14,724 bases of DNA from Acetobacteraceae bacterium. Lineage in GTDB: Bacteria > Pseudomonadota > Alphaproteobacteria > Acetobacterales > Acetobacteraceae. The position numbers and the translations under genes were made by a program. Location: positions 1-14,724 of the forward strand of contig JASHVB010000677.1 of assembly GCA_030039695.1 (NCBI GenBank), in the 5' to 3' direction. How positions within the stretch are numbered: the first letter of the stretch is position 1; each line of letters starts with the position of its first letter. Of this stretch, positions 1 through 14,724 are shown piece after piece. The notes beneath the pieces were generated by a model, which did no database searches, was not told the origin of the DNA, and saw nothing but the letters and a program-made list of their open reading frames with translations.

Positions 1-2
1 CC

Positions 3-170
3 TCCAGCTCGCAATGTTTATTTCAGCACGGCGAGATCTTCACCGGCGTAACCCTGCCGATTGCGTGGCCCATCATTCGGGCGTACGGCCAGCAGATATA
101 CGGCTCATTGAATGAAGCCCTGAAGCGGCGTGCGGAAACGCCGTCCGCGGACGGCAGCACGCCCGGCTGA
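3..170 (+). CDS. C-terminal 55 codons of an unidentified protein (5' end outside window)
   Basis: An open frame enters from the left edge and ends at TGA 168-170. It reads as a plausible C-terminus: a hydrophobic stretch (GEIFTGVTLPIAWPII), then a helix rich in charged residues (YGSLNEALKRR), then a polar Ser/Pro/Gly-rich tail ending in TPG. It is only 21 bp upstream of the next + strand gene, which has a strong ribosome binding site, so the two are probably co-transcribed. I do not recognise the family from this fragment. Given the hydrolases elsewhere in the window it could belong to another lipase or alpha/beta hydrolase, but nothing in the 55 residues shows this. No start codon or catalytic motif is visible. 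Confidence 0.55.
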   Translation, partial: SSSQCLFQHGEIFTGVTLPIAWPIIRAYGQQIYGSLNEALKRRAETPSADGSTPG

Positions 171-180
171 CCACGTCGGC

Positions 181-186
181 AGGAGG
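181..186 (+). promoter_or_regulatory. Strong Shine-Dalgarno for the first GMC oxidoreductase
   Basis: AGGAGG lies 5 nt before ATG 192. It fixes that start and supports translation from a message shared with the upstream partial gene. Confidence 0.85.
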
Positions 187-191
187 TTCCC

Positions 192-1880
192 ATGACCAGC
201 GTCCTGTCTTCACCGATCGACTTCATGCGTGGCGAATATGATGTCGTCATCGTCGGGTCGGGCTACGGCGGCGGCATCGCTGCCTCCCGCCTCAGCCGCG
301 CCGGCAAGACTGTGTGCGTGCTGGAGCGCGGCGCGGAGAAGCAGCCGGGTGATTATCCTGACAACGCGCTGAGCCTGCTGGAGGAGATCCAGCTCGACAT
401 GCCGGCTGGGAGGCTCGGGTCGGACCTGGCGCTGTTCGACATGCGATACAACGACAGCGTGAACGTCGTGGTGGGCTGTGGCCTGGGCGGCACGTCGCTG
501 ATCAACGCCGGAATTTGCCTGCGGCCGGACCCGGCCGTGTTTGCCAACGGCAATTGGCCCACTGCCTTGAGAGGCGGGAGCACGCTCGCGGGGTATTTTG
601 ACCGCGCCGAAGCCATGCTGAAGCCGTCGCCGAGCCCTGCCGCCTTCCTAGCCTCGGATAAGACACGGGCTTTGCTGGCGGGCGCAGCGGCGGTCGGCAA
701 GACGGCGGCGGCGGTCTCGGTCCTGGTCAATTTTCAGCCCTTGCCGGACGACAAGAACCACGTCGGCGTCACGCAACTTCCCTGCATTGGCTGCGGCGAC
801 TGCGTGTCTGGCTGCAACCACCGTGCGAAAAGCACGGTCATCATGAATTACCTTCCCGATGCCAAAAACCACGGGGCGGCGATATTCACCCGCACGCGTG
901 CACGCTACGTCGAACCGGCAGGCTCCGGTTGGATGGTGCACGGCCAGATCGTCGGCGGCGATAGCGGCAACATCGCTTTTCAGGTGAAGGGTGGAGTGGT
1001 CGTTTTGGCGGCGGGCACCTTGGGCAGCAGCGAACTGCTGCTGCGGTCGCGCGACAAAGGGCTGGCAATCTCCGAGCGACTCGGCAGTCGGTTTTCCGCC
1101 AACGGCGACATGATCGGGTTTGCCTACAACACCGGCCGCGACATCAACGGCATTGGGCTGGGCAGCCGCAAACTTGGTGACAAGGCGCCAATCGGACCCT
1201 GCTCTACCGCGATGGTGGACTGGCGCGTGGGCACCGGCCCGGCCGGCGGCGCGGTGATGGAGGATGGCGCGATACCGGGCGCCGTATCGGCGTTCCTGAC
1301 CCCGGCGCTGGCGACGGCGTCGGCGTTCCTTGGCACCGAGGCAAGCCAGAACCTATGGAACGAGCTCAAGCAGAAAGCGCGGGCGGCCGAAAGTGAGTTC
1401 GCCGGCTCGTACACCGGCGCCATCGCCAACACGCTGTTCTTGCTCTGCATGGCTTATGATGACAGCCAGGGACGCATGTTCCTGCGCGACGACCGGCTGC
1501 GGGTGGATTGGCCAGGCCTGGGACAACAGCCGCAATTCGTCACGGCCAGCGACAAGATCCGCCGGATCGCGGAGGCACTCGACGGCACCTACGTGCAGGA
1601 TCCTGTCTGGAGCAACCTGACCGGCCACAGCATGATCAGCGGACACCCGCTGGGCGGTTGCCCCATGGCAGACGATGCCGACCGCGGCGTCGTCAATCAT
1701 AAAAGCCAGGTGTTCCGTGGGACGACCACCGGGCCCGACGTGCATGCCGGGTTGTACGTGATGGATGGCTCTGTCGTGCCGACGGCATTAGGTGTCAATC
1801 CGCTGTTCACAATATCGGCGTTGGCCGAGCGAAGCTGCTATGAAATGGCGCGTGACTACGGCTGGACCATCGCGTACTGA
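192..1880 (+). CDS. GMC-family FAD oxidoreductase, cholesterol-oxidase (ChoD-like) type with CxxCxxCxxxC cluster
   Basis: This 562-aa flavoprotein is predicted to oxidise an alcohol on a bulky lipid or sterol-like substrate. The N-terminal Rossmann motif is YDVVIVGSGYGGG (residues 16-28), with the acidic ribose-binding residue in VLERG (43-47). C198, C201, C204 and C208 form CxxCxxCxxxC, a ferredoxin-like pattern shared by ChoD-type GMC proteins, followed by AKSTVIMNYLPDA. The C-terminal GMC signature is GHPLGGCPM (H485), then LYVMDGSVVPTALGVNPLFTI (521-541) with N536, matching the family's His/Asn active-site pair. There is no signal peptide or Tat motif, so it is probably cytoplasmic. The stop codon abuts the stop of the convergent DyP gene with no gap. 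The family is secure; the substrate is not, and cholesterol oxidation should not be assumed. Whether the cysteines bind 4Fe-4S is inference. Confidence 0.93.
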   Translation: MTSVLSSPIDFMRGEYDVVIVGSGYGGGIAASRLSRAGKTVCVLERGAEKQPGDYPDNALSLLEEIQLDMPAGRLGSDLALFDMRYNDSVNVVVGCGLGGTSLINAGICLRPDPAVFANGNWPTALRGGSTLAGYFDRAEAMLKPSPSPAAFLASDKTRALLAGAAAVGKTAAAVSVLVNFQPLPDDKNHVGVTQLPCIGCGDCVSGCNHRAKSTVIMNYLPDAKNHGAAIFTRTRARYVEPAGSGWMVHGQIVGGDSGNIAFQVKGGVVVLAAGTLGSSELLLRSRDKGLAISERLGSRFSANGDMIGFAYNTGRDINGIGLGSRKLGDKAPIGPCSTAMVDWRVGTGPAGGAVMEDGAIPGAVSAFLTPALATASAFLGTEASQNLWNELKQKARAAESEFAGSYTGAIANTLFLLCMAYDDSQGRMFLRDDRLRVDWPGLGQQPQFVTASDKIRRIAEALDGTYVQDPVWSNLTGHSMISGHPLGGCPMADDADRGVVNHKSQVFRGTTTGPDVHAGLYVMDGSVVPTALGVNPLFTISALAERSCYEMARDYGWTIAY

Positions 1881-3371
1881 TCAGTCGCCCCGCGCCAAAA
1901 AGCGCAACGCCCGCACGCCAGGTAGGAAGAAATATCCACCGCCGCGCACGGTGACGAAGGCCGGCACCGGCTGCAGCCGCCGCCTTACCCCGTTCGCCTG
2001 TGGCAAACTGAAGCTGTCCGTGGCGCGGCCCGAGCGCAGCGGCAGACGATTTCCCGTCACTGGGTCGCTTTCTCCGGCGATCCCATTAAATTTGGTACTG
2101 CTCAGCCACGCATTCTGAACGAATTCGAATTGCCGGCTGATGTTGGCATTCAGGCAGATGAAATGCAGCCCGCTCCGTGGATCGGAACAATCAGGCTGCA
2201 TCGCGGACTCGGGCGGCACCCAGGTGCCAAACTCGCGTCCCCGCCGCACGATGCGGTGAAATCGGCTGGATGCCACGAGATCCCCCCGCAGATCAGGCCG
2301 CCCAATTCCCAATGTGCGAACTAGCCGCGCGATCAGACCCTCCTGCCCGCCCGGCATGTCGCCCGTCCGAGGGTTGGCGCGCCGTACATGCGCGCCCAAC
2401 GGACAACGCCCCCCCTCGGCGTCGCCATCGTACGTGAACTGGTTGTTCGCGATGTCGGCCACATCCGGGCCAACCCCACGTATCGGCGCATTTTGTAGCG
2501 GCATTAGCGGATCTCCGGAAAGGTGCCGGCCGATCATGCGCTCGGCGAGAGCCTCGGCACGGCCGGCGTCCGCTTGTGCGGCCATGAAACGCCAGAATCC
2601 CCTGACATCCTGATGCAGCTCCCGCAACACCAGATAGCTGCCGTTGCGCCCGAGGTCGCGCAAGCCTGGCTGATCCTCCGCGCTTGGCAATGCCGCGCCG
2701 GCGGCCTCGGGCAGCAGGGGCCGGTCGGTGTACTCGCCGTATTCGTTCTGATATCCGAGCAGGAATTCGCCGCGCACGATCAGATTGCCATAATCAAGGT
2801 CGGCGTTGGTGCCTGGCTTGCGCTTGCCGAACCAGTCGATCTGCGGCTGGCTCACGCCATCGACGAATCCGAACGGCTCCTTGCCGCCCATGTCGTTAGT
2901 TAGCAATTGCTGGACAACGTCGAAACCGTTCTGCTCGACCGCCGCGGTGATTTTGCCAGACCACGCCTCCAGTTTTGCCGCTTCGGCATAGAGCAGCAGC
3001 AGGACGCCCGGCTCTCCCTGACCACCCCAGCGCCAGTTCGCCGGGGCATTCGCATCGACATCGCCCAACCTGCGCGACCGCGCCTGGTCGGTTGCCATGC
3101 CCGACAGGAATTCGGATCCGAAGCCACCGATGACGGGTTCGGCGACACCAAGCTCGATAAGACCATTGGCCGACAGCGCGATCTGCAGCGCCGTCGCCTG
3201 ATGCGTGTTCAGATGCCCGATCGTCGTGACTGGCGCGTCGCGCAGCCAAGCACGAGCCGCCACCCGATCCCGAACCCGCAGCAGCATAAACGTTGCGGCA
3301 GACAGAGCGTTGAACCCCGACCACAGCAGAGCCTGGATGTCCTCTGCTTCCGCAGGGTGCGCCGCTGTCAT
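1881..3371 (-). CDS. DyP-type heme peroxidase
   Basis: This 496-aa enzyme should use heme and hydrogen peroxide to oxidise organic substrates. The diagnostic GxxDG motif is GFVDG (residues 168-172), with D171 as the distal catalytic acid. The proximal heme ligand is H328 in CPLGAHVRRANPR. The distal arginine region is FHRIVRRGREFG (371-382). GLHFICLNANISRQFEF and FVTVRGGGYFFLPG complete the fold. The open frame extends 40 codons upstream, but that extension lies inside the preceding gene. ATG 3371 overlaps the neighbour's TGA as ATGA and gives an N-terminus starting MTAAHPAEAEDIQ. There is no Shine-Dalgarno before it, which fits translational coupling. No Tat or Sec signal is seen, so it is likely cytoplasmic, unlike exported DyPs. 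It is the last gene of a three-gene operon and is longer than compact bacterial DyPs (about 300-350 aa). Confidence 0.94.
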   Translation of the reverse strand: MTAAHPAEAEDIQALLWSGFNALSAATFMLLRVRDRVAARAWLRDAPVTTIGHLNTHQATALQIALSANGLIELGVAEPVIGGFGSEFLSGMATDQARSRRLGDVDANAPANWRWGGQGEPGVLLLLYAEAAKLEAWSGKITAAVEQNGFDVVQQLLTNDMGGKEPFGFVDGVSQPQIDWFGKRKPGTNADLDYGNLIVRGEFLLGYQNEYGEYTDRPLLPEAAGAALPSAEDQPGLRDLGRNGSYLVLRELHQDVRGFWRFMAAQADAGRAEALAERMIGRHLSGDPLMPLQNAPIRGVGPDVADIANNQFTYDGDAEGGRCPLGAHVRRANPRTGDMPGGQEGLIARLVRTLGIGRPDLRGDLVASSRFHRIVRRGREFGTWVPPESAMQPDCSDPRSGLHFICLNANISRQFEFVQNAWLSSTKFNGIAGESDPVTGNRLPLRSGRATDSFSLPQANGVRRRLQPVPAFVTVRGGGYFFLPGVRALRFLARGD

Positions 3372-4651
3372 ATCAGCGCCAGCCAGCGCCGGGCTTCGGC
3401 TTCCGTCATACGTTCGCGTTGCAGGCCTTCGCGAATCTGCGTGTTGGTTGCAAGATTCGATGCTGTGAGGTCCGGATACGCCTTGTACCAAACCTGTGTC
3501 TGTACTTCATGCCGATGCAAATAATTCTTGAACTCCTGCTCGTACGATGCGCCTCCAAACAGCAGAAAACTGGTGCGCGGCCAGCCGATACCGTTGCTGA
3601 AGACGAGGTTCAGGCCAAACGCGACCTTGTTGATGAAATCATCCATATAACTGTCCAGGCTGCCGTCGTAATTGCTGGCGAACAGCAGCCGGCGACGGTT
3701 GTCAAGGAACACCCAGCGCGCGAAATGGATCGTCCCCACCCGCGCCAGCCGGCCGCGGGTATAGATGAAACGCGTGCTGAATTCGAGCGCGCGAAACACC
3801 AGCAGCAGCGTGCATAGTCGGAACAGGCCGGGCTTCACGCTACCGAACGCACTGAATGGGTTGGTGACGTCATAATCTTCCAGCCGGCTCGTTGCCGCGA
3901 GATGCGCTGCGGTGGGACGCGGTGTGATCACCGGATCGGTCCTCTCGCGAATGCGCAGCTGCCAGAGCAAAAGCGGAGACAGCACCAGCAGGAAGGGCAA
4001 CAGCAGAATGGTGGCCAGCGTGGTGGTGAGCAACCAGAGGCGACGTTCGCGCTGCCAAGCAGGTCCCGTCGGCGCAGGCGGTGACAGCGCCGGCCCGGCG
4101 CGCCGCGCATCTGCCACCAACCTCTCGCGCACCAAAACCGCCGGCTGCGTCAGGAGCGTCGCGTCGCGTTCGAGACAATCACGCAGAAAATCGTGCAACG
4201 TCGCTTCCTCGCGGATCTGCTGCACCGTGCGCCCGACCCAGTTCACGTATTGCGCCGCCGGCGGCACGGAATGCCGACGCATCCAGTCCAGCAGATCTGC
4301 ACCTGGCGGTTCTTCGCAATGGGCGAAGATGCTGCGCAGCCCCCCCTCCGCCGTCGCCGCGAATTGGCGCAGCATGTCGTCAGCGGGACCGTCGCAATCG
4401 CCCAGGAACACCATCCAGACCGGAGCATTCGGAAACGACGTGCCGTATGCGGCCAGGTCCCCCAGCGTCTCGTCGCGCAGAATGACAAACCGCGCAACGT
4501 GCAGCCGGTCGTAGCGTCCAAACGGCAGCAGCGTGTTGCTGGGATCAACCCGGCCGGGCGCGCTGTTCATGCTCTCTAGTGCCGCGGACAGAGCCGCGTG
4601 CTGCGTCGGACGGATCGGCGCAGCAACCATGAAGGCCGATTGAGGAGTCAT
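3368..4651 (-). CDS. Uncharacterised membrane protein with two related soluble halves (DyP-operon partner)
   Basis: A 427-aa protein I cannot assign to a named family. Residues 206-230 form one strong hydrophobic segment, preceded by RERR and followed by RIRER. The soluble parts on either side look alike. LHVARFVIL (50-58) matches IHFARWVFL (308-316). VFLGDCDGPADDML (81-94) matches LFASNYDGSLDSYM (323-336). QQIREEATL (144-152) matches TQIREGLQR (404-412). Each half reads like a ferredoxin-like alpha/beta unit, the fold also used by DyP peroxidases, but I see no heme-ligand motif. Its stop overlaps the DyP start (ATGA), and the upstream gene ends 15 bp before its ATG. This linkage suggests it anchors, chaperones or works with the peroxidase. 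A second in-frame ATG at 4630 is possible; neither has a clear Shine-Dalgarno. Confidence 0.85.
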   Translation of the reverse strand: MTPQSAFMVAAPIRPTQHAALSAALESMNSAPGRVDPSNTLLPFGRYDRLHVARFVILRDETLGDLAAYGTSFPNAPVWMVFLGDCDGPADDMLRQFAATAEGGLRSIFAHCEEPPGADLLDWMRRHSVPPAAQYVNWVGRTVQQIREEATLHDFLRDCLERDATLLTQPAVLVRERLVADARRAGPALSPPAPTGPAWQRERRLWLLTTTLATILLLPFLLVLSPLLLWQLRIRERTDPVITPRPTAAHLAATSRLEDYDVTNPFSAFGSVKPGLFRLCTLLLVFRALEFSTRFIYTRGRLARVGTIHFARWVFLDNRRRLLFASNYDGSLDSYMDDFINKVAFGLNLVFSNGIGWPRTSFLLFGGASYEQEFKNYLHRHEVQTQVWYKAYPDLTASNLATNTQIREGLQRERMTEAEARRWLALI

Positions 4652-4666
4652 AGCCGCCGAAGCCGG

Positions 4667-5101
4667 TCAGAACTGCAGGCAGAAGTCGATCAGCCGCGTC
4701 TTGTCCCAATAGACCAGGCCAAGGTAGAGCCCCGGTGGCTGGATCAGCCGGATCTCATCGCGGATCCAGTGGGCAACGACGGAGGTCTGCGAGTAGTCGA
4801 GGACGATGCACTCCTTGCCATCAAACCAGCTGGGTGCCTTGTAGACACTGGCGATGATCGCGTTCAGCCCGAACGGGCCGATGCGGTTCTTGAGCTGCGC
4901 CGTGGCTGGGTCGAACACCTTACCCTGCCAGGCGAAGTACTTGACGAAATTTGCGATGTCCGGGCTGAAGGTAGTTCCCGGCGCGATGATCGCGGTGCCG
5001 TCCGCTTCTCCTGCCGGGATCGGCCCTGCGTCGCTGGCGGTGAACAGGGCATCCAGTTCCTGCTGCGACATGCGCAGAAGCTGCGGCACATCATAGGACA
5101 T
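4667..5101 (-). CDS. Conserved-looking small protein of unknown function, first gene of DyP operon
   Basis: This 144-aa soluble protein has no signal peptide and no membrane segment. The open frame has an earlier ATG at 5122, but GGGAGGA sits 6 nt before ATG 5101, so the start beginning MSYDVPQLL is preferred. After a short helical N-terminus (LLRMSQQELDALF) the pattern is strand-rich: PAGEADGTAIIAPGT, AWQGKVFD, LKNRIGPFG, ECIVLDYS, WIRDEIRLI and LYLGLVYWD. This resembles a small beta-barrel of the lipocalin/calycin or GXWXG/DUF4334 sort, which often bind hydrophobic ligands. That fold is a guess from pattern only. No catalytic motif is recognised. It leads the operon with the 427-aa membrane protein and DyP, 15 bp apart from the former, and a ligand- or heme-handling role for the peroxidase is conceivable. 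Confidence 0.85.
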   Translation of the reverse strand: MSYDVPQLLRMSQQELDALFTASDAGPIPAGEADGTAIIAPGTTFSPDIANFVKYFAWQGKVFDPATAQLKNRIGPFGLNAIIASVYKAPSWFDGKECIVLDYSQTSVVAHWIRDEIRLIQPPGLYLGLVYWDKTRLIDFCLQF

Positions 5102-5107
5102 GGCGTG

Positions 5108-5114
5108 TCCTCCC
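5108..5114 (-). promoter_or_regulatory. Shine-Dalgarno deciding the 144-aa protein start
   Basis: Read on the - strand, GGGAGGA is followed by CACGCC and then ATG 5101. It selects this ATG over the in-frame ATG at 5122, which lies upstream of the ribosome site. Confidence 0.8.
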
Positions 5115-5148
5115 TGTCTCATACGGTCGTCGTTTCCTCAACGCACCA

Positions 5149-5154
5149 CAAATA
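5149..5154 (-). promoter_or_regulatory. Possible -10 element of the DyP operon
   Basis: Read on the - strand this is TATTTG, which matches only the first three bases of TATAAT. Its interest is position: a transcription start about 7 nt downstream (near 5143) would place the centre of the FNR-like box at about -41.5, the standard class II activator distance. Weak on sequence, supported by geometry only. Confidence 0.25.
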
Positions 5155-5177
5155 GGCATCGATCCGCAACTATTTTT

Positions 5178-5191
5178 TTGATATCTATCAG
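5178..5191. promoter_or_regulatory. FNR/CRP-family (FNR/ANR/FixK-like) operator candidate
   Basis: TTGATATCTATCAG matches the FNR consensus TTGAT-N4-ATCAA at 9 of 10 specified positions. Its core is a perfect inverted repeat, TGATA-N2-TATCA. It lies almost exactly midway in the 166-bp gap between the start of the DyP operon (5101) and the start of the catalase-like gene (5268), next to the most AT-rich tract of the region. Geometry favours activation toward the DyP operon; on the + side no -10-like sequence appears at the matching distance. Any CRP/FNR-superfamily regulator could be the binder. Confidence 0.45.
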
Positions 5192-5253
5192 CCACCACCT
5201 TCCGCAAGGCCGCCCGAGCGGCATCCTGTCGGGTACTCGCCTCGTCAATTCAC

Positions 5254-5258: not shown

Positions 5259-5267
5259 AATAGCGCC

Positions 5268-6449
5268 GTGTTGCTGAAGCGATTACACGATGCTGTGGTG
5301 TCCCTGCTGCACTTGGAGCGGCGGTTTGAGCCATTCTTTCGTCCGGCAGTCGATGCCGTCCTGCGCGAGCCGTCCGCTGCCCTGATCCAAATGCTGATCA
5401 ATCTGCCTCGCCGCGATGAAGGACTGCGCCTCGCCGAAGAAACGATTCAGCCGAATGAGGAGGCACATCTCCAGGCGATGATCGAGACGCTCGGTGAATA
5501 CATGAAGCGGCACTGGCCGCCTGGGAATTTCCAGCGTGGCGGCAACACCAAGACCCACGGCGTTGTCCGTGGCACCTTTACGGTGCGCGACGACTTGCCG
5601 GCGAAGTACTGCCACGGTCTGTTTTCAAAGCCAAAGGCCTATCCGGCCTGGATCCGGTTCTCTGGCCCGGGACCCGACTGGCCGCGCGACATTGACGACG
5701 TCGGGTTTGTCAGTTGCTCGATCAAGGTCATGGGGGTGCCCGGCCCCAAGCTCATGGAGGATGAGAAGTTCACCCAGGACTTCCTCAGTATCTGTACACC
5801 GACTTTCGTCACCCCCGACACACGCGCCAACGCCAAGCTACAGGCCTGGATCCTAAAGGGCACGCCACTATTTTACTTCGTCGATCCGCGCGATTCGCAT
5901 GTGCTGGACGGATTTATGCAATCCTGGTGGAACAAGACGCAAAGCAACCCCCTAGGCGAGCGCTATTGGAGCTGCGTGCCCTATCTCCTGGGCGAAGACC
6001 AGGCGATGATGTATTCGGTCTATCCGCTGTCTAAGGTCTATCGCCACATTCCCCGCTTGCCGCTGCGTCCGCCGGACAACTATTTGCGAGACAACATGGT
6101 GCGGACATTATCGGAACAGGATGTCGAATTCGACTTCATGCTGCAGTTGCAAACCGATTCGTTCCGTATGCCGATTGAGAATGCTGCCGTGCGCTGGCCG
6201 GAGAGGCTGTCGCCTTTCATGCCGGCGGCACGGGTCCACATTCCGCGCCAACGCTTCGATTCGCCGGAGCAATTGGCGTTCGCCAACGTGCTTTCCTACA
6301 ACCCCTGGCATTGCCTGCCGGAGCATCGGCCGCTCGGCAACCAGAGCCGCGCCAGGCATCGGATGTATCGGGAACTTTCGCAGCTTCGCCAGCGGATGAA
6401 CAACACGCCGCACGTCGAGCCTACGGGAGACGAAGTATTTCCGACGTGA
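5268..6449 (+). CDS. Catalase-family heme protein (short, catalase-core / allene-oxide-synthase-like)
   Basis: From GTG 5268 the protein is 393 aa, shorter than true monofunctional catalases (about 480 aa or more). It matches the minimal-core relatives. The distal histidine is H97 in NTKTHGVVRGTF. Heme-pocket RFS is at 130-132, followed by DDVGFVSCSIKVMGVPG. The proximal heme-ligand pattern RxxxY is RHRMY (R363, Y367), after NPWHCLPEHRPLGN. WPERLSPF and the IPRQRF segment are also typical. At the usual distal-Asn position (family pattern close to QDFLxxNxPxF) this protein has QDFLSICTPTF, putting C176 where Asn is expected by eye. It has no signal peptide. It is divergent from the DyP operon and convergent with the second GMC gene. 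It may act on organic or lipid hydroperoxides, or be a peroxidase; strong catalase activity is uncertain. Confidence 0.9.
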   Translation: MLLKRLHDAVVSLLHLERRFEPFFRPAVDAVLREPSAALIQMLINLPRRDEGLRLAEETIQPNEEAHLQAMIETLGEYMKRHWPPGNFQRGGNTKTHGVVRGTFTVRDDLPAKYCHGLFSKPKAYPAWIRFSGPGPDWPRDIDDVGFVSCSIKVMGVPGPKLMEDEKFTQDFLSICTPTFVTPDTRANAKLQAWILKGTPLFYFVDPRDSHVLDGFMQSWWNKTQSNPLGERYWSCVPYLLGEDQAMMYSVYPLSKVYRHIPRLPLRPPDNYLRDNMVRTLSEQDVEFDFMLQLQTDSFRMPIENAAVRWPERLSPFMPAARVHIPRQRFDSPEQLAFANVLSYNPWHCLPEHRPLGNQSRARHRMYRELSQLRQRMNNTPHVEPTGDEVFPT

Positions 6450-6647: not shown

Positions 6648-8546
6648 TCACCCCATGGCGTCCGCCAGGATGACGTCCGCGGCCTTCTCCGCAATCATGT
6701 ACACCGCACTGGCGATGAAGTAGCCGGGAATTCGCGGGAAGACCGAGGCATCCGTCACGCGCAGACCGGCCGTGCCATGCACACGAAAGTCGCTACCCAA
6801 TACACCATTTTCCTCCACAGGTCCGATCGCGCAGGTGCCACAGGCGTGATGGCCCCAGGCATTGTCGCGCACAAACTGCTGCAGAGCGTCATCGGAACCA
6901 ATAGCGCGTCCCGGCACTTCTTCCTCTGCAATCAGACCGGAACGGACAAGCGGATCGGATAGCCGGCGTGCCAGCCGGATTCCGGCCACCACGGCACGCA
7001 AATCCATCTCTTCCGGATCGTCCGTCTGATCGAAGTAGCGGAAATCGACGCAGGGTGGATCGGTCGGGTCTGCAGATTGCAGTGTCACCTTGCCGGCGCG
7101 GTTGCGGGTATGCGCCTTCAGAATGCTCCACGTCAGCCGGTTGCGCTGTTCAGCGATGGCGCGGGAGTAGCCGGGGTAGTAACCCGTGAACGGCGCCAAC
7201 ACCGACATCAGGAACAGGTCCGGCTGCGCCGTCTTTTCATCGGACTTCGCCGCGACGCAGATTCCCGCGCCATTTGATCCGTACATGCCATGGCCGCCGC
7301 GCTGCCACTCCCGCCACGACGGATCACCGCGCCGGAATGTCGCGTCGCGCATTGAGGGCCACACGGGAATGGCCATGCGGTTGACCACGCCGATCTCGTA
7401 ACGGTCCTGCAGGTTCTGCCCAACCCCCGGCAGGTCGATCAGCGACACAATGCCCAGGGATTCCAACGCCTCCTTCGGGCCGATTCCCGATAGCATCAGA
7501 AGTTGCGGGGTGTTGAAGGCACCGCCGGCCACGATGACCTCGCGCCGCACCTGCACCGTATGAATTTCGCCCGGCGTCCGGGCAGGATGGCAATGCGCAC
7601 GGTATTGATTGGCGCCACTGCGATATTCAACGCCGACCGCGCGCTTGTTCTCGTCCAACAGCACACGTGTCGCTAGGGCATTCAGGCGCAGTTCCAACAG
7701 GCGCGGCCAGCTTGCATGCATCTCCAGCAGCCGTTCGCGCGACCCGTTGCGGCGGTGCCGGTACGTGGCGAGCGGCGTGTAGAACAGATCCGCTGCGTCG
7801 TGCTGTAACACGCTGCGATCATTTGGATCACCAAACGATCGCAGCATTACGCGCAGCCGCTGCCACAGGCCGCGGCGCTGACCCAGCGCGATCATCGACG
7901 CCGTCGCCATTACGCGCACCACGTCGCCGTCGTCCAATGCCTGCCGCGGCAGTGCCTTCTCGGTGGACAGCCAGCCGCGCCAGCCGTGCCCGGTGCCGTC
8001 GATGCCAAGCCGGGCCAGCACACGAGCCACCGGACGGTAGCGGCAGTCCTCCAGCCGCGCGAAATAGCGCGCCATGTTCGCTGCGCACCATGACCGGTCT
8101 TTGGTTTGGTCGGCGATCGCATCCCAGTCCGCGTCCGATGGCGCGATCAGAATCATCGCGTTATGTGCGGTGCAGCCGCCCAGGCAAGACGCGCGTGGGT
8201 ACAGGACCCCGTCCGCTGGCCGCCCCTCCCAGGTCGCCCGATATTTCGGATCGCGTTCGCGTTGCGCCCGGTCCGCATAATGCCGCACGAAGAAATGCCA
8301 GGAGATGGCCTGGTTTTCCGAAGCGAATGGATGGAAAGCAGGAACCTCGTAGTCATCCGGCAGGCGGTTCTCCCGCGGCTCGAGCGGATCGCCACCGGAC
8401 AATTCATAAGGGTCACCGCCGGCTTCCAGCACGACGACATGGAAGCCGGCCTCGGCGAGCCGTGCCGCCACCGCGCCACCGCCCGCGCCCGACCCGACGA
8501 CGACATAGTCGCAAATGTCGGACAATGGTGCGTCATTCGGTGGCAT
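6648..8546 (-). CDS. GMC-family FAD oxidoreductase (choline/alcohol dehydrogenase-like)
   Basis: This 632-aa flavoprotein is the second gene of the operon behind the di-heme cytochrome, 13 bp downstream of its stop. The FAD Rossmann motif is [11 protein letters not shown] (residues 14-24), with VVVLEAGGD at 37-45. The second GMC signature is [16 protein letters not shown] (117-132). [16 protein letters not shown], a standard GMC segment, follows in the middle. Near the C-terminus [11 protein letters not shown] carries the catalytic histidine (H566/H567). The final motif [21 protein letters not shown] has hydrophobic residues where BetA and choline oxidase have the Asn-rich GGNPNAPT, so the second active-site residue differs. 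No signal peptide or Tat motif is visible, which is awkward for direct electron transfer to the exported cytochrome. It likely oxidises an alcohol to an aldehyde or ketone; the substrate is unknown. Confidence 0.93.
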
Positions 8547-8559
8547 GGGGCGCGCGCCT

Positions 8560-11028
8560 TCAAAACGTCTTGAGATACTCGATCAGCGCGCGCTTGTCGG
8601 GATCGCTCAGGCCAGGCTCCTCGGTGAAGAGGTCAGTGCCAAAATAGTGGCCCCGATTGATGACATAGTCGGGACATACACTGAGCGAATACAGCTCGCG
8701 CCCCAACGGCTCGAAGATGCGTGCCGCGGTCGCGTCGTCCACATTTGCCGGCATCGCCGCCATGTCGTGCCGCAGCCGCAGCGCCATGCCCAGCAGCTTC
8801 CAGTCACGCGCCACAGCTGCCATCCAGCCAGGATCCTCCGGCAGCGGATCGAAATTGCCGAGCAAGCCCACCGCCGTGCCTTTCGGAATCGGCCCGATCT
8901 GCAAGTCACCGTTGGCAGCAACGATTCCCGGAACCAGCCAGTTCAGCGGCCCTTGGAGCCAGCCCAGGTAACCCGGCTGGAAGCCGACCGGCACCTTGAG
9001 CCAGCTTGTCGCGGTCGTCCGTTGGATCAGGCCGACACCCTTCGCCCCCAGCACTTCGTCACGTGTCCGTTTTTCCGGCCACAGCATTTGCTCGATGCTG
9101 GCCTGGAACACCCTCATACGCGTCGCCACGGATGGGTTCTGATCGAATGGCCCAACCGAGTTGTTCAGCAGGAACGGCGCGGTAGACCACAGGCTGATTA
9201 GCGACGGTGGTCGGGTAAAGCCTCGCCCGCCACCCGGCATGGTGAACTTGTGCGGTTCCCCCGTGAAGGGATCCTGCACCGTGATGTCACCGACCGAGGG
9301 CAAGCTCTTGTAGCTCTGCGAGGAGAAATTGTCCCAGATGTTATTGGCCAGCGCATTGCGCGCCAGCGGGCTGCAGGCGTTGGTTTGCAGTAGGGTCACT
9401 GGCACTCGGAACTCGTTCGACAGGTAGTTGTCGGTCTGGAAATCGGGCTGCTGCGCGATCGCCCGCATCTTCTGCTTGAAATCGTCGGTCTTGGTCCAGG
9501 CCCAGTAGCGGTTCCAGCAAGCCAGGTAATTCGGCCCGTTGCAGTCCTCCGTGCCGGGCCCCTCCATGCCCACGATCGGGTGCGGCAGCTTACCGGAATG
9601 GCAGCGGGCGCAGCGCTCGGCGAACACGGTCCGACCGCGATCGAGCGTGGTTGCGTCGGCCGTCAAATACAGGTCGCGTTGGTCCTGGGGTAGGTCGGCG
9701 AGCAAGTCCGGCTTACCCGCGGCAAGCAAGAATTCCGCCATGTAGAAGGTCTGTTGCTCAGTCGCCTGCCAGTAGACCGAGTTGTGGTTGGCGTCGGCGA
9801 TGCGTATCGGGCTCATCCGCTTGCCGCCAGTGAACGGATTGAAGTGCAGCAACCACTCCTCGCTGAACACCCCGATATTGAGATAAACTCGGTTGAGCGC
9901 ACCCATGACGCCCACCGAGTCCGACCCGTCCTTCAGCACGCGCGGGGTGTAAACGTACGGTTTGTCATACAAAGCCGCCAGCGGCCCAGAAGAGACGAAG
10001 TCGTTGAGTTGCTTGTTGTCGAGCTGTCCTCCGACGAGACGCTCCCGCCCGATTGGCTTTGCCTGCAAGAGTCGCGCTTTCAGGCTATAGATCGCGTTCA
10101 TCGTGCGGGGATTGACGATGCTGTCTGTCGAGACCAGAGAAGTATCGAGCGTACCTGGTAGATAGGTGTGCAGAAGCTGGAAGATGAAGTTGGACTGGTC
10201 GGCCTGCCAGGCGAACACCCGGTCAAACCAGAAATACTGCGAGCCGACAGTCGAATTAAGGTTCGACCACTGCGGATGCTCTGGATCGGCCGGCGAATGG
10301 ATCGGGCTTGGCCCGATGTGACAGAATCCGCACGCCATGCCGACGCGATAGGGCCGCACCAAATCCTTCTGCTCATAGTAGCTCGGGTCATTGTAGAAGC
10401 GCTGCGGGTCCCAGCGGCGGCGCGCCGCGTCGTCGAAGTCGGGGTTAGGAAACAGCCGCAACCCCACGATGCCCGTAGGCTCACCATAGTAGGAACCGAC
10501 CGGTAGGCCCTCACTGCCACGCGCGCCCAGTTTAACCCCTGGATATTTGGCCGCATTCGCAAAGGGATCGGGACCGTCGGGACAATCGGCACGGCGCTGA
10601 TCGAGCCACAGCCCGAAATGCTTCGCGTCCGGTTGGGTCGGCTTGTCGAAGCAGGGCTCATTGATGACGCCAAAATATGACCAGCGGTTGTCGCGGCTGA
10701 ACGGCGAACCAGGCGCCGAGGATATCATCTTCAGCAGGTCGAACGTGCCGAACGCATCCTGGATCAGGGTGTCCCAGAACCGATCGTTGCCGCCGGACCA
10801 CACCAGCCACATATTGCGGCCTTTGACTTGGTCTGCGGTCAGCTTCACGCCGTTGTCCATATCGTGGAAATAATCTTCGTCGGCGGCGGGGAAGGAGCTG
10901 GCCACGCGGCCGGCACGCATCGCCTCATCGTGCACCTGGCCAGGCTTCGGCGCGTTGTTGCCGAACCAAAGAAATGCGATGCCGCCAAGTATCAACAATC
11001 CTATCAGAATCAGGATGACCCGGCGCAT
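8560..11028 (-). CDS. Membrane-anchored di-heme c-type cytochrome, RoxA / di-heme peroxidase-like
   Basis: An 822-aa exported protein. Residues 1-22 form an uncleaved-looking signal anchor (MRR, then a hydrophobic run to FLWFG). Two c-type heme sites are present: CGFCH (C233, C236, H237) and CARCH (C473, C476, H477). RPPSLISLWSTAPFLLNNSVGPF, starting near 606, matches the conserved C-terminal element of di-heme cytochrome c peroxidases and RoxA rubber oxygenases (typically TAPYLHNGS), with Leu-Asn in place of His-Asn. The end, INRGHYFGTDLF then DKRALIEYLKTF, is also typical. Six further cysteines (126, 149, 496, 504, 552, 785) could form periplasmic disulfides. GGGAGG 5 nt upstream supports ATG 11028. 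It leads an operon with a GMC oxidoreductase and is divergent from the patatin gene. It is longer than RoxA (about 680 aa), and rubber cleavage is only one possibility alongside peroxidase or electron transfer. Confidence 0.9.
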   Translation of the reverse strand: MRRVILILIGLLILGGIAFLWFGNNAPKPGQVHDEAMRAGRVASSFPAADEDYFHDMDNGVKLTADQVKGRNMWLVWSGGNDRFWDTLIQDAFGTFDLLKMISSAPGSPFSRDNRWSYFGVINEPCFDKPTQPDAKHFGLWLDQRRADCPDGPDPFANAAKYPGVKLGARGSEGLPVGSYYGEPTGIVGLRLFPNPDFDDAARRRWDPQRFYNDPSYYEQKDLVRPYRVGMACGFCHIGPSPIHSPADPEHPQWSNLNSTVGSQYFWFDRVFAWQADQSNFIFQLLHTYLPGTLDTSLVSTDSIVNPRTMNAIYSLKARLLQAKPIGRERLVGGQLDNKQLNDFVSSGPLAALYDKPYVYTPRVLKDGSDSVGVMGALNRVYLNIGVFSEEWLLHFNPFTGGKRMSPIRIADANHNSVYWQATEQQTFYMAEFLLAAGKPDLLADLPQDQRDLYLTADATTLDRGRTVFAERCARCHSGKLPHPIVGMEGPGTEDCNGPNYLACWNRYWAWTKTDDFKQKMRAIAQQPDFQTDNYLSNEFRVPVTLLQTNACSPLARNALANNIWDNFSSQSYKSLPSVGDITVQDPFTGEPHKFTMPGGGRGFTRPPSLISLWSTAPFLLNNSVGPFDQNPSVATRMRVFQASIEQMLWPEKRTRDEVLGAKGVGLIQRTTATSWLKVPVGFQPGYLGWLQGPLNWLVPGIVAANGDLQIGPIPKGTAVGLLGNFDPLPEDPGWMAAVARDWKLLGMALRLRHDMAAMPANVDDATAARIFEPLGRELYSLSVCPDYVINRGHYFGTDLFTEEPGLSDPDKRALIEYLKTF

Positions 11029-11033
11029 ACTTG

Positions 11034-11039
11034 CCTCCC
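11034..11039 (-). promoter_or_regulatory. Shine-Dalgarno of the di-heme cytochrome
   Basis: GGGAGG on the - strand lies 5 nt before ATG 11028, fixing the start of the exported cytochrome and its signal anchor. Confidence 0.8.
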
Positions 11040-11198
11040 GTTTCCCGCCCGATTCATGCGGCTATCACGCACCGTTGCAGTGCGTTCGTTGCCCTGTTGG
11101 CCTGGTCCGGCGAATCGACCCAACGTAACGGCGTGGCCACCTCGCTGTCAAAATGAAATGCGAACAACGGGCCCGGGCTAACACGTCTCGGATTTCTG

Positions 11199-11228
11199 TT
11201 GCGAAACGTCCCGGCATGGCGCCATAGT
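11199..11228 (+). promoter_or_regulatory. Possible promoter of the patatin gene, implying a leaderless or near-leaderless mRNA
   Basis: TTGCGA (11199-11204) and CATAGT (11223-11228) each match sigma70 consensus at 4 of 6 positions, with an 18-nt spacer. Transcription would begin about 7 nt after the -10, which is the ATG at 11235 itself. No Shine-Dalgarno precedes that ATG, consistent with this reading. A 4/6 match is common by chance, so this is weak. Confidence 0.25.
11216..11225. repeat. 10-bp perfect palindrome before the patatin start
   Basis: ATGGC-GCCAT lies 9 nt upstream of ATG 11235, inside the possible promoter. It could be a repressor half-site pair or coincidence; no second copy is seen in the 206-bp divergent gap. 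Confidence 0.25.
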
Positions 11229-11234
11229 AGCGAA

Positions 11235-13955
11235 ATGAGTGCGCGGAGCCCGAACCAGCCGGAACCCGAGCTGCGGCCGGTCTCGACACTCGCCGGCGCG
11301 CTGTGGGACGAATTTGAGGCGATCCACGCAAAGCCTCGAGCCGCAGCGACAGCGCAGGGGCCCGATGCGTCATTGCACGCTTATTATAGCGCAGCTTTGG
11401 CAATGCCACAGGCAGCTTTGTGCCTGTCCGGTGGCGGCATCCGCAGTGCGGCTTTCTCACTCGGCGTGCTGCAGGCGCTGGCGCGCAGCAAGCTACTTAC
11501 GAGCTTCCACTATCTCTCTACCGTCTCGGGTGGCGGCTATGTCGGTGGATGGTTGTCGGCGTTGCTGCACGAACGCGACTGCGACGCCGCGAAAGTGCAG
11601 GATCTGCTTGCGGCTGACACCGCGCCGCCCGAGCTCGACGCGTTGCGGCGCTATACTGACTTTCTGGCACCACACCCGGGCTTGGCCTCGCCGGACACGT
11701 GGGCAGGAATCATATTGTGGCTTCGAAACGTCCTGGTGAACTGGCTGATCTTCTTTCCGGCATTGTTTGCGTTGGCAATGCTCCCCAACTTTTATCGCGA
11801 CATCCTGGCGACGATCTCCCCAGCCTGGAGCTGGCCGCTCTTGCTCGTCGCATTGGCGGGACTGGGCATCGGCGTTTTCAATGGCGTCAGGCACGCTCCC
11901 AGCCATGGATTCCACGAAGCAACCAGGCGAGGCCGCCAGACCGGTTTCGTGCCGTGGCGCGTCGTCGTACCGCTCATGCTATGGTCGTCATTCGTGCCGC
12001 TGGCCGCCGCGCCCTGGTTGCGTCCGGTGATGCCGATCGGCGCCGTCTCGGGCGATGTGATCCCCCTGCTCGGCTTCATCGTCAAGGAGCTGGCTTTTCT
12101 GCTGGCGCTGGCAACCGAGGACACCGAGGACCGCAAGCTGCTTTGCCACAATTTCGGCTGGTGGACCCTCGCGTCGCTGGCGGCAACCTTCGTGCTGTGG
12201 ATCGCGCTCTGTCTGGGCAACGCCCGCAATATCAGCATCGTTGCCGTGCTCGGGCCGCTCGCCGTCACGATGGCGCACCTGGTGCAGTCATTGGTCTATG
12301 TTGCGTTCCGGACTGAGGCGTTCCGCGGCGATCTCGATCGCGAATGGCTGGCGCGCCTGAGCGCCGAGAAGGCGATTCCCGCATTGCTCTGGGCCGTGTT
12401 CGCCGCGATATGCCTGTTCCTGCCCGGGTGGGCGCTGGACGGTTGGAACACTGCCTTCGCCCCGTTCGCGATGAGCGCCGTCGGGCTGCTGACCGGACCG
12501 CTCGCCGCATATCTCGGCAAGATCGCACAGGACGTTCCAGGCGCCGGTGTACCCGGCACCAGCAACAGCTACGTGCCGCCATTGCGCATCGTGATCAACG
12601 TGATCGCGGCGGTGTTCGGCATCGCGCTGTTTATGCTGCTTGCACGGTTGGGGACGCTGCTGTCCAACAACCATTGGCGCGCCGACCTGCTGCTGCTGAT
12701 CATTGCAGTATTGCTGGCCTGGGGGTGCGGGAAGCACATCAACGTCAATCGCTTCTCCATGCATGCGGTGTATCGCAATCGGTTGGTGCGGGCATTCCTT
12801 GGCTCAGCACGACCGGACCGTACCCCTGACGACTTCACCGATATCGACCCGAAGGACAATCCGCGCATTGCGGATCTGCAACTGTCGGCGTGCAGCGATG
12901 GCAAAGCGCCCGCGATCGACCCGCCTGCTACGAGGCGTCCCCCGCGCATGCTGTTCCCGGTGGTCAACGTCACGCTCAATCTGGTGGCCGGGCGCAACAC
13001 GGCGTGGACGGAACGCAAGGGTGAAAGCTTCACCATAACGCCCGTCAGGTGCGGCGGGGCCTATCTACACAGGCGCGAGGACCAAGCGGCCGGTTTGCCG
13101 GTACGCGGCGCTTACGCGCGCACCGAGGCCTATGCAGGCAAGGAAAAGGAGACCGGGCCGGACGACCAGGGCCGGGGCATCACGCTAGGTACCGCGATCA
13201 CATTGTCCGGCGCCGCGGTCAGCCCGAGCATGGGTTATAACTCCTCGCCCGCTACCGCCTTCCTGATGACATTGTTCAACGTACGGCTGGGTGCATGGTT
13301 GCCGAACCCCGCCATGGCCTCGACCGGGCAGCTCCTGCAAGCCAAGCCACCGAATGCGCTGCTGACCCTAGCGCGTGAGCTGCTCGGGCTCACTGACGAT
13401 CTGGGCAAGGCCGTGTACTTGAGTGACGGAGGCCATTTCGAGAACCTCGGTTTGTACGAGATGATCCGTCGCCGCTGCCGATACATCGTAGTGGTGGATG
13501 CAGGCGAAGATAGTAAAGCCTGGTTCGAGGACTTGGGTAATGCGATTCGTAAGGCACGAATCGACTTCGATGTGGAAATCGACTTTGACCCGCCCGTCGG
13601 CATCGGATCGCGCGACCGGCCGTCAACGCCGTTCCGCAGCTTCGCCTGCGCCACCATCCGCTACCCGGAGAGCCAAACGACCGGCCGACTGATCTACCTC
13701 AAGCCGTGCGCTCCACCCGATATGCCAATGGACGTGCGTTCCTACTTCAATGCGCACGCCAACTTTCCACACGATTCGACAACAGAGCAATTCTTCACCG
13801 AAAGCGAGTTCGAGAGCTACCGTCAGCTCGGTCAGACCGAAGCGCTGAAGCTGATACGCGGTGCTGGCACCCTCGCGGCTTGCTTTGAAGCGGCCATCAA
13901 ACGGCTGCGGCAGCCGCTCAACACGAACGGCTGCGGCGGGCTACCGAGAGCCTGA
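11235..13955 (+). CDS. Patatin-like phospholipase with inserted multi-pass membrane domain
   Basis: From ATG 11235 the protein is 906 aa. The oxyanion motif SGGGIRS (residues 65-71) and the nucleophile segment STVSGGGYVGG (S98) form the first half of a patatin domain. The catalytic Asp lies far away in LSDGGHFENLGLYEM (D731-G-G), followed by YIVVVDAGED. Between them, roughly residues 159-498 contain about ten hydrophobic segments, so a membrane domain splits the Ser-Asp dyad. The dyad and domain are those of serine lipases or phospholipases A, and the product should be an integral inner-membrane enzyme acting on lipid acyl esters. A TTG at 11199 would add 12 residues but has no ribosome site; ATG 11235 is preferred, also without a clear one. 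It is divergent from the di-heme cytochrome and 64 bp upstream of a DUF2235 hydrolase. The substrate is unknown. Confidence 0.9.
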   Translation: MSARSPNQPEPELRPVSTLAGALWDEFEAIHAKPRAAATAQGPDASLHAYYSAALAMPQAALCLSGGGIRSAAFSLGVLQALARSKLLTSFHYLSTVSGGGYVGGWLSALLHERDCDAAKVQDLLAADTAPPELDALRRYTDFLAPHPGLASPDTWAGIILWLRNVLVNWLIFFPALFALAMLPNFYRDILATISPAWSWPLLLVALAGLGIGVFNGVRHAPSHGFHEATRRGRQTGFVPWRVVVPLMLWSSFVPLAAAPWLRPVMPIGAVSGDVIPLLGFIVKELAFLLALATEDTEDRKLLCHNFGWWTLASLAATFVLWIALCLGNARNISIVAVLGPLAVTMAHLVQSLVYVAFRTEAFRGDLDREWLARLSAEKAIPALLWAVFAAICLFLPGWALDGWNTAFAPFAMSAVGLLTGPLAAYLGKIAQDVPGAGVPGTSNSYVPPLRIVINVIAAVFGIALFMLLARLGTLLSNNHWRADLLLLIIAVLLAWGCGKHINVNRFSMHAVYRNRLVRAFLGSARPDRTPDDFTDIDPKDNPRIADLQLSACSDGKAPAIDPPATRRPPRMLFPVVNVTLNLVAGRNTAWTERKGESFTITPVRCGGAYLHRREDQAAGLPVRGAYARTEAYAGKEKETGPDDQGRGITLGTAITLSGAAVSPSMGYNSSPATAFLMTLFNVRLGAWLPNPAMASTGQLLQAKPPNALLTLARELLGLTDDLGKAVYLSDGGHFENLGLYEMIRRRCRYIVVVDAGEDSKAWFEDLGNAIRKARIDFDVEIDFDPPVGIGSRDRPSTPFRSFACATIRYPESQTTGRLIYLKPCAPPDMPMDVRSYFNAHANFPHDSTTEQFFTESEFESYRQLGQTEALKLIRGAGTLAACFEAAIKRLRQPLNTNGCGGLPRA

Positions 13956-14019
13956 CGGTGCGGCGCGACGGCGTGCCACGCAGTGCGACAGAACGGCATC
14001 AAAACCGGGGGAACGTCCG

Positions 14020-14724
14020 ATGAGCAAGGTCATCGTATTTTGCGCCGACGGCACCTGGAATGGCCCCGGCGAGCCCGACGACGACAACACCGCGGCGCCA
14101 CCCACTAACGTGTTCAAGCTGTTCCTCAACCTCGCCGGCACCGATCAGCCCGGCACCATCCTGTTGGCAAGAGAGCAAGAGCGGGTGCTGCACGGGAGGG
14201 ATGGTATGGTGCAGCAGACGGCCAAGTATCTGCATGGCGTAGGGGATTCGACCAATTTCCTGGTGCAGGTACTTGGCGGCAGTATCGGCGCGGGACTGAT
14301 CGCGCGCATCGTACGCGGCTACACGTTCATCTCGCGTGAATATGTGCCGGGCGACCGGATATACATCGTCGGCTTCAGTCGTGGCGCCTACACCGCGCGA
14401 GCGCTCGCCGGCATGATCGCCGCCAAGGGCTTGCTCGACGCGACGAAGAACACGCTCTCCGACAAGAACAACGCCTATCGCCTGGGGTCCGCGGTCTGGT
14501 ACGAGTGGCGGCAGGCGGTGGCACAATCCAAGGCGGGGTGGCTGACGAAACTTGCCAATATTGCAACCGACCTGCCAGCCTTCCTGCAGAAATCAGTGCC
14601 CGACAACCAGCTTATCAAGGCGCCGATCGAGGTGGTTGCGGTGTGGGAAACAGTCGGAGCGCTGGGTATTCCCGACTACACGCGACAGGACACGCGCCTT
14701 GACGTGTTCCAGTTCGCAGACCGG
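14020..14724 (+). CDS. DUF2235 alpha/beta hydrolase, partial (3' end outside window)
   Basis: An open frame of 235 codons runs off the right edge. GGGGGA 7 nt before ATG 14020 supports the start. The N-terminal strand VIVFCADGTWNG (residues 4-15) is the DUF2235 hallmark. QTAKYLHGVGDS (66-77), GGSIGAGLIARIVRGY (86-101) and the nucleophile elbow IVGFSRGAYTARALAG (S120 in GFSRG) follow. VWETVGALGIP (208-218) has Glu210 where I expect Asp in the family (WDTVGA). DUF2235 includes the Tle1 phospholipases of type VI secretion, but there is no vgrG, PAAR or tss gene here, so that role is unsupported. Its position 64 bp behind the patatin gene suggests a second esterase or lipase in the same transcript. 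The catalytic His region is outside the window. Confidence 0.88.
   Translation, partial: MSKVIVFCADGTWNGPGEPDDDNTAAPPTNVFKLFLNLAGTDQPGTILLAREQERVLHGRDGMVQQTAKYLHGVGDSTNFLVQVLGGSIGAGLIARIVRGYTFISREYVPGDRIYIVGFSRGAYTARALAGMIAAKGLLDATKNTLSDKNNAYRLGSAVWYEWRQAVAQSKAGWLTKLANIATDLPAFLQKSVPDNQLIKAPIEVVAVWETVGALGIPDYTRQDTRLDVFQFADR

What the first reader, a model, noticed from the sequence alone, without database searches (positions are those of the whole stretch)
1..14724. Co-localised lipases, three heme oxidoreductases and two GMC flavoenzymes: candidate oxidative lipid or isoprenoid processing system
Seen: patatin-like and DUF2235 hydrolases, DyP peroxidase, catalase-core protein, RoxA-like di-heme cytochrome and two GMC oxidases, plus two proteins of unknown function, arranged in divergent and convergent blocks with no unrelated gene between them. 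Known: catalase-core proteins include allene oxide synthases acting on lipid hydroperoxides, RoxA-type cytochromes cleave polyisoprene, and GMC enzymes oxidise alcohols. Inferred: hydrolysis, oxygenation or peroxide conversion, then alcohol oxidation of one hydrophobic substrate class. A peroxide or lipid-peroxide defence island is the main alternative.
Basis: partly seen in the sequence, partly recalled or inferred. Interest (0 to 1): 0.75.

Follow-up and report, generated by a model that had tools for sequence, protein, structure and literature searches.

The report
Conserved bacterial lipid-oxidation gene cluster
A set of six oxidation genes, centred on a peroxidase and a previously unnamed partner protein, keeps company in distantly related bacteria and may make or process oxidised fats, which would give this kind of peroxidase a natural job that can be tested.

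Summary
The genes are there as described. Six of the nine form a conserved system: P151, P427, DyP peroxidase, catalase-related CAT, GMC2 and di-haem ROX. All six are in 15 of 37 loci that hold P427, at least five in 22 of 37, in Pseudomonadota and Acidobacteriota. Among 120 genomes of one acidobacterial family, strong P427 and strong CAT matches fall in the same 7. GMC1 recurs in none of the 37; patatin (6) and Tle1 (3) are accessories.

P427 is predicted to be a tandem alpha+beta barrel with a hydrophobic helix, P151 a lipocalin-like barrel. On plasmids P427 and DyP occur as one polypeptide, sometimes with a P450. CAT's nearest solved relatives are coral allene oxide synthases, ahead of catalases. 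Three loci without ROX carry a fatty-acid alpha-dioxygenase relative, and patatins are enriched near P427.

Best reading (0.45): exported dioxygenases make fatty-acyl hydroperoxides that CAT (or a P450) and a P427-DyP complex convert. No chemistry is shown. Lipid-peroxide detoxification and specialised-metabolite tailoring are live rivals. Ten literature searches listed no paper on this cluster.

The parts
192..1880 (+). GMC1, cholesterol-oxidase-like GMC flavoenzyme; neighbour, not a core member
   Evidence: Pfam GMC_oxred_N/C over cut-off; NF058674 166.6 bits against a cut-off of 850; no orthologue in 37 loci
1881..3371 (-). DyP-type haem peroxidase, 496 aa; core
   Evidence: profile against PDB: 8re3 6.8e-102; D171, H328, R377 in 27 of 27 members; in 36 of 37 loci; ATGA overlap with P427
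3368..4651 (-). P427, tandem alpha+beta-barrel protein with an inserted hydrophobic helix; core, no Pfam or NCBIfam match
4667..5122 (-). P151, predicted lipocalin-like barrel; core, no Pfam or NCBIfam match
5268..6449 (+). CAT, catalase-related haemoprotein of the coral allene-oxide-synthase type, 393 aa; core
6648..8546 (-). GMC2, choline-dehydrogenase-like GMC flavoenzyme; core
   Evidence: Pfam over cut-off; in 21 of 37 loci
8560..11028 (-). ROX, di-haem cytochrome with N-terminal hydrophobic anchor, two CxxCH 240 residues apart; core
   Evidence: in 25 of 37 loci, two of them with the shorter paralogue only
11199..13955 (+). Patatin-like protein with many hydrophobic segments; accessory
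   Evidence: Pfam Patatin 31.8 bits, cut-off 27.7; in 6 of 37 loci
14020..14724 (+). Tle1/DUF2235-like hydrolase, 3' end cut by the window; accessory
   Evidence: PF09994 140.7 bits, cut-off 27; in 3 of 37 loci at about 30% identity
5123..5267 (.). 145-base divergent spacer between P151 and CAT
   Evidence: no promoter call was made above shuffles
11029..11198 (.). 170-base divergent spacer between ROX and PAT

Best explanation
A conserved haem-based lipid-oxidation system made of two units. Unit A is P151-P427-DyP with CAT; unit B is ROX-GMC2, often with a lipase. Proposed working: lipases free or expose acyl chains; an exported dioxygenase (ROX, or an alpha-dioxygenase in some lineages) adds O2 and gives fatty-acyl hydroperoxides or cleavage products; CAT, or a P450 in other lineages, rearranges or splits the hydroperoxide; P427 and DyP act as one membrane-docked complex that oxidises the product or uses the peroxide; P151 carries the hydrophobic intermediate; GMC2 oxidises the resulting alcohol or aldehyde. 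Shown: the six genes keep company, P427 and DyP occur fused, catalytic residues are kept, CAT's nearest solved relatives are coral allene oxide synthases, three ROX-less loci hold an alpha-dioxygenase relative. Inferred: the substrate, every chemical step, the exchange of ROX for alpha-dioxygenase and of CAT for P450, the carrier role of P151, and membrane topology.
For: All six core genes in 15 of 37 loci and five or more in 22 of 37, in 22 arrangements, partial loci counted. Strong P427 and strong CAT in the same 7 of 120 genomes, within about 3 kb. CAT profile: 1u5u 4.4e-8, 3dy5 7e-7, 3e4w 3.3e-5, catalases 0.017 and weaker; Thr-His pair and RxxxY kept in most or all members as in coral AOS. 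Alpha-dioxygenase relatives in L018, L024, L026, nearest solved relatives 4kvj 4.5e-57 and 4hhr 5.3e-53 for the L024 copy, motifs kept in all three and in L101. RoxA-type di-haem proteins PA2077/PA2078 make and convert fatty-acid hydroperoxides (PMC4496055, abstract and passages). Patatin within 10 kb of P427 in 7 of 28 genomes, 0.51 expected. P427-DyP and P450-P427-DyP fusions.
Against: No product or activity is shown. Distal His is replaced in 5 of 31 CAT members, and PMC5617202 reports that one wild-type coral AOS with the same residues has marked catalase activity, so residues do not decide. ROX never meeting the alpha-dioxygenase has a chance of 0.028 and rests on about two lineages. Distant alpha-dioxygenase relatives occur in 17 further genomes of the order surveyed, none near P427. 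ROX occurs without P427. ROX was not compared with PA2077 by sequence. P427's best fold matches are polyketide proteins. P151 has no Foldseek match at E 0.001. P151-CAT distances correlate weakly (r 0.21).
Confidence: 0.45

Rival explanations
1. A lipid-peroxide or peroxide detoxification island: CAT, DyP and ROX remove hydroperoxides from damaged membranes, lipases excise oxidised acyl chains, and no dedicated product is made.
For: Peroxidase plus catalase-related protein plus lipases; P. aeruginosa PA2077 product is toxic and PA2078 relieves it (PMC4496055 passages).
Against: CAT is nearer to allene oxide synthases than to catalases; an oxygenase relative, which would make hydroperoxides, sits in three loci; a GMC oxidase is part of the core.
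Confidence: 0.25
2. Tailoring of a specialised metabolite (polyketide, aromatic or terpenoid) by a set of oxidases built around P427-DyP.
For: P427's best matches are WhiE-ORFI and the decarboxylase Abx(+)O; P450 fusions.
Against: The Pfam lists shown for 112 of 152 neighbour ORFs (first 25 of 51 and of 50 families) name no polyketide or peptide synthase; lipases recur instead.
Confidence: 0.2
3. Breakdown of polyisoprene, lignin or another polymer, with ROX as a rubber-oxygenase relative.
For: Pfam RoxA-like_Cyt-c in 11 of 17 ROX members at E up to 10, best 1e-6.
Against: The window member has no such match; RoxA/RoxB/RoxC equivalog scores were far below cut-off in the members tested; haem spacing 240 against 199 in RoxA.
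Confidence: 0.07
4. Chance neighbours.
For: GMC1, and often the lipases, do not recur.
Against: Recurrence in two phyla in many arrangements, the same 7 of 120 genomes, gene fusions.
Confidence: 0.03

Closest known systems
Coral allene oxide synthase / hydroperoxide lyase (catalase-related; PDB 1u5u, 3dy5)
   Same: CAT: best solved relatives by profile; Thr-His and RxxxY layout
   Different: Not fused to a lipoxygenase; lipoxygenase found in 1 of 31 genomes; activity unknown
P. aeruginosa oleate diol synthase, PA2077/PA2078 (FadCcp)
   Same: Two CxxCH; spacing 240 in ROX against 245 and 235; exported
   Different: That operon is a tandem of two di-haem proteins; no DyP, CAT or P427 is mentioned in the passages seen. 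Sequences not compared
Rubber oxygenases RoxA/RoxB
   Same: Two CxxCH, exported
   Different: Weak sequence similarity and other haem spacing
Plant and cyanobacterial fatty-acid alpha-dioxygenases
   Same: Neighbour protein in L018, L024, L026: motifs and best PDB hits
   Different: 936-1021 aa against about 620-650 in the PDB chains; not in the window
DyP-type peroxidases (8re3, 4au9, 2d3q)
   Same: Catalytic Asp, His and Arg
   Different: Tied to P427 by overlap, co-occurrence and fusion
WhiE-ORFI / Abx(+)O, tandem ABM-type barrels (9lmn, 9ltx)
   Same: Fold of P427 by prediction
   Different: P427 has an inserted hydrophobic helix and about 10% identity

Membership tests
Catalase-related hydroperoxide enzyme (coral AOS type) | Nearest solved relatives are coral AOS rather than catalases | tested here: met
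   1u5u 4.4e-8 against 0.017 for the best catalase; with a narrower alignment only the two coral entries, at 0.043 and 0.57
Catalase-related hydroperoxide enzyme (coral AOS type) | Distal Thr-His, haem Arg and proximal Tyr | tested here: met
   Window member has them; T 29, H 26, R363 31 and Y367 31 of 31 members
Catalase-related hydroperoxide enzyme (coral AOS type) | Acts on fatty-acid hydroperoxides | not testable with these tools
   needs enzyme assay
True catalase | Pfam Catalase match over the gathering score | tested here: not met
   no match in P0123; 1 of 31 members matches at all
DyP peroxidase | GxxDG Asp, proximal His, distal Arg | tested here: met
   27 of 27; which His and Arg are the ligands is recalled. 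TIGR01413 score 78.3, below its cut-off of 100.5
RoxA/RoxB rubber oxygenase | NCBIfam equivalog score over cut-off | tested here: not met
   no Rox model listed for the window protein; paralogue in L015 32 bits of 900
RoxA/RoxB rubber oxygenase | Two CxxCH motifs | tested here: met
   17 of 17 members
FadCcp (PA2077/PA2078) | Two CxxCH with 235-245 spacing | tested here: met
   240 in the window; 239-248 in 14 of 17, 237 in one, 220 in two. Spacing of 229-250 is also seen in other CytoC_perox proteins, so not specific
FadCcp (PA2077/PA2078) | Sequence relationship to PA2077 and oleate oxygenation | not tested
   no PA2077 sequence was fetched
Alpha-dioxygenase (L018, L024, L026 neighbours) | Distal His, catalytic Tyr and proximal His motifs | tested here: met
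   3 of 3 plus L101; alignment to 4kvj for L024
ABM-type alpha+beta barrel (P427) | Tandem ferredoxin-like barrel fold | tested here: met
Lipocalin-like carrier (P151) | Closed lipocalin-type barrel | tested here: inconclusive
Tle1 phospholipase | Catalytic-domain model over cut-off | tested here: met
   140.7 bits, cut-off 27, on the partial protein
Tle1 phospholipase | Type VI secretion context | not tested
   no whole genome is held

The most novel reading that the evidence does not exclude
A bacterial oxylipin assembly line: an interchangeable exported dioxygenase (di-haem or alpha-dioxygenase type) feeds an interchangeable hydroperoxide-rearranging haem enzyme (catalase type or P450 type), both built around a conserved membrane-docked P427-DyP complex. 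It would be a bacterial parallel to eukaryotic dioxygenase-AOS pairs and would give DyP peroxidases a natural substrate class.
Probability: 0.3. Interest if true: 0.85.

Novelty: new variant of a known kind. Interest (0 to 1): 0.62.

Why it matters
What DyP peroxidases do in nature is an old open question (recalled). Here a DyP is tied by gene overlap, co-occurrence and fusion to an unnamed partner protein and to enzymes with fatty-acid affinities, so the question becomes testable in cultivable bacteria such as Paraburkholderia sacchari, and for ROX-GMC2 alone in Rhizobium johnstonii 3841. It also points to bacterial oxylipin chemistry without lipoxygenase.

Tried and rejected
Rejected: chance neighbourhood for the six core genes. 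Rejected: rubber oxygenase as the main reading. Rejected: lipoxygenase as the source of hydroperoxide in most carriers (1 of 31 genomes). Rejected: GMC1 as a member. Not shown: profile homology of P427 to DyP (hhalign probability 0.4%).

Nothing found: PHROGs for seven proteins, Rfam, near DNA match in plasmids, promoters or terminators above shuffles; the repeats listed look like chance. PDB by single sequence gave nothing useful for CAT, P427, ROX or PAT. The CytoC_perox survey (47 of 293 genomes over cut-off) did not place ROX nearer to PA2077 than to RoxA. P427 was found in only 2 of 120 genomes of the order of L005's genome, both already known.

Literature: ten searches; none of the papers listed is, by title and start of abstract, about this cluster. 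One search found no paper; one search listed 20 of 2,051 and 20 of 30; only open-licence papers are held.
Full report
WHAT IS THERE. The window encodes nine products. P151-P427-DyP form a minus-strand row: 15 bases between the first two, an ATGA overlap between P427 and DyP. CAT is divergent from P151 (145 bases). ROX and GMC2 form a second minus-strand pair (13 bases apart). PAT and Tle1 run rightwards, divergent from ROX (170 bases). GMC1 converges on DyP without a gap. The window's CAT is listed on a contig of 14,724 bases. Relatives with a source's name are Acetobacteraceae, Rhodospirillales and other Alphaproteobacteria.

IS IT MORE THAN CHANCE. A scan of one genome for each of 84,980 species with a P427 alignment gave 37 loci (two short patterns were used, so others are missed). 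tblastn of the window proteins found P151 in 30, DyP in 36, CAT in 23 (one, L010, at 30% identity only), GMC2 in 21, ROX in 25 (L012 and L021 only as a shorter paralogue at 37-38%), patatin in 6, Tle1 in 3 and GMC1, counting only matches over 300 residues, in 0. Hand count from that table: all six core genes in 15 of 37, at least five in 22 of 37; some others are cut by contig ends. The 15 include Paraburkholderia, Acidisoma, Caulobacteraceae, Phenylobacterium and four acidobacterial records (titles). There are 22 arrangements, partial loci counted, so membership is kept while order changes. In 120 genomes of the family of L015's genome (titled Acidobacteriaceae), P427 matches 9 (7 at E below 1e-170, 2 near 1e-81 to 1e-85) and CAT 12; the 7 strong CAT matches (E below 1e-160) lie in exactly the 7 genomes with strong P427, on the same contigs within about 3 kb. 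The chance is 1.7e-11 if genomes were independent, which they are not. P151 is in 9 and ROX in 13 of the 120, so both also occur without P427. The system is patchy: 2 of 120 genomes in the order of L005's genome, 4 near-full-length P427 among 194 in the order of L024's genome. Distance matrices correlate between families (r 0.21-0.87; for 14 of 15 pairs no permutation of 500 reached it; for P151-CAT 19 did, limited to loci up to L034 and members of at least 44% identity).

TWO UNITS. ROX is on 21 plasmid records, all Rhizobiaceae or Mesorhizobium by name. I opened three. In R. johnstonii 3841 pRL11, ROX, a GMC enzyme and an annotated patatin follow each other; in S. fredii pSF45436e ROX-GMC has a DUF2235 gene nearby; the third has no annotation. 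P427, DyP and CAT gave no match in those 25-27 kb stretches. Conversely L018, L024 and L026 have P151-P427-DyP-CAT without ROX or GMC2. The window joins both units.

FUSIONS. A P427 search found 45 plasmid records, none covering 80% of the query in one place; I opened six. In Rhizobium sp. CC1099 (L166, 974 aa) P427 and DyP profiles match one polypeptide; in Novosphingobium aromaticivorans (L163), Pararhizobium qamdonense (L164) and Sulfitobacter sp. CB2047 (L165) a P450 domain precedes them. In Skermanella rosea (L167) P427, DyP and P450 are three overlapping neighbours; the S. mucosa record looks alike by annotation and was not profile-tested. The Pfam P450 score of L163 is below cut-off, those of L164, L165 and L167 above. 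A strict P450 cysteine motif is found in L164, L165 and L167; L163 keeps the cysteine in a variant motif; the GFxDG pattern is not found in L165. Fusion plus adjacency argue for a P427-DyP complex. That CAT and P450 fill the same slot is inference.

THE HAEM ENZYMES. CAT: the 31-member profile finds coral AOS 1u5u (4.4e-8), 3dy5 (7e-7), 3e4w (3.3e-5), then catalases (0.017, 0.027). A narrower 20-member profile gave only the coral pair, at 0.043 and 0.57. Thr96-His97 and Arg363/Tyr367 match the layout given for coral AOS (PMC5617202, passages); His97 is replaced in 5 of 31 members. The same paper says these residues are shared with catalase and that one coral AOS has marked catalase activity, so they do not prove function. 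DyP: D171, H328 and R377 in 27 of 27. ROX: two CxxCH in 17 of 17, 240 residues apart in the window; PMC4496055 (abstract, outline and passages) gives 245 and 235 for the fatty-acid enzymes PA2077 and PA2078 and 199 for RoxA. Similar spacing occurs in other proteins, and no sequence comparison with PA2077 was made.

THE SUBSTRATE CLUE. L018 (Gemmatimonadaceae), L024 (Pseudomaricurvus) and L026 (Parahaliea) encode a 936-1021 aa An_peroxidase protein. The nearest solved relatives of the L024 copy are fatty-acid alpha-dioxygenases, 4kvj (4.5e-57) and 4hhr (5.3e-53); motifs are kept in all three and in L101. Their N-termini look like lipoprotein signals in L018 and L024 (by eye). Of 194 genomes in the order of L024's genome, 20 have a match; three at 70% identity or more: L024's own, G401 with P427 1.6 kb away, and G329, on short contigs, where P427 was not found. 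The 17 distant ones are not near P427. PF03098 occurs in 11 of 31 genomes: near P427 in 3; in 8 elsewhere, of which 5 are shown on another contig than P427. Among the 37 loci ROX and alpha-dioxygenase never meet, with a chance of 0.028. Alpha-dioxygenases make 2-hydroperoxy fatty acids (PMC8720084, passages). Lipolytic genes: a patatin within 10 kb of P427 in 7 of 28 genomes (two of them Paraburkholderia) against 0.51 expected from 125 patatins in 145.4 Mb, P about 1e-6 if independent; Tle1 relatives in L013, L028 and L032; Lipase_3 and an alpha/beta hydrolase in L012, an alpha/beta hydrolase in L006. Lipoxygenase is in 1 of 31 genomes. For the neighbour scan 112 of 152 called ORFs went to Pfam, and the answers show the first 25 families of each half.

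VERDICT. The six-gene core is real and, as far as ten searches of an open-licence library show, not described. The lipid reading is the best supported but unproven; detoxification and metabolite tailoring remain open.

Noticed in passing
L163 6814-11145; L164 6874-11145; L165 6739-11601: Three-domain polypeptides P450 + P427 + DyP (1443, 1423 and 1620 aa) on alphaproteobacterial plasmids.
   Followed up: partly
L160 8384-14652; L161 8408-14640: Rhizobium and Sinorhizobium plasmids carry ROX-GMC2 behind two further di-haem (CxxCH) proteins and an NADH:flavin oxidoreductase.
   Followed up: partly
L024 8256-9371; L026 8438-9490: A second, 32-33% identical CAT copy without the distal His lies beside the alpha-dioxygenase; its N-terminus looks like a lipoprotein signal by eye.
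   Followed up: no
L036 8389-11371: Rhizobium calliandrae: DyP, a single ABM half and a PF00199 catalase-family gene in a row, a possible minimal version of unit A.
   Followed up: partly
L015 1453-3591; L012 6315-8426; L021 1478-3760: A shorter ROX paralogue (37-40% identity, 703-760 aa) beside or instead of the main ROX; the L015 and L012 copies match CytoC_perox and, weakly, Rox models.
   Followed up: partly
L003: A record titled Solirubrobacterales carries a cluster 55-80% identical to the alphaproteobacterial window; perhaps a wrongly binned contig.
   Followed up: no
L010 3357-4379: The place of CAT in this Caulobacteraceae contig is taken by a protein only 30% identical to CAT.
   Followed up: no
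window 192-1880: GMC1 resembles cholesterol oxidase far below the family cut-off (166.6 of 850 bits) and is not conserved with the cluster.
   Followed up: partly
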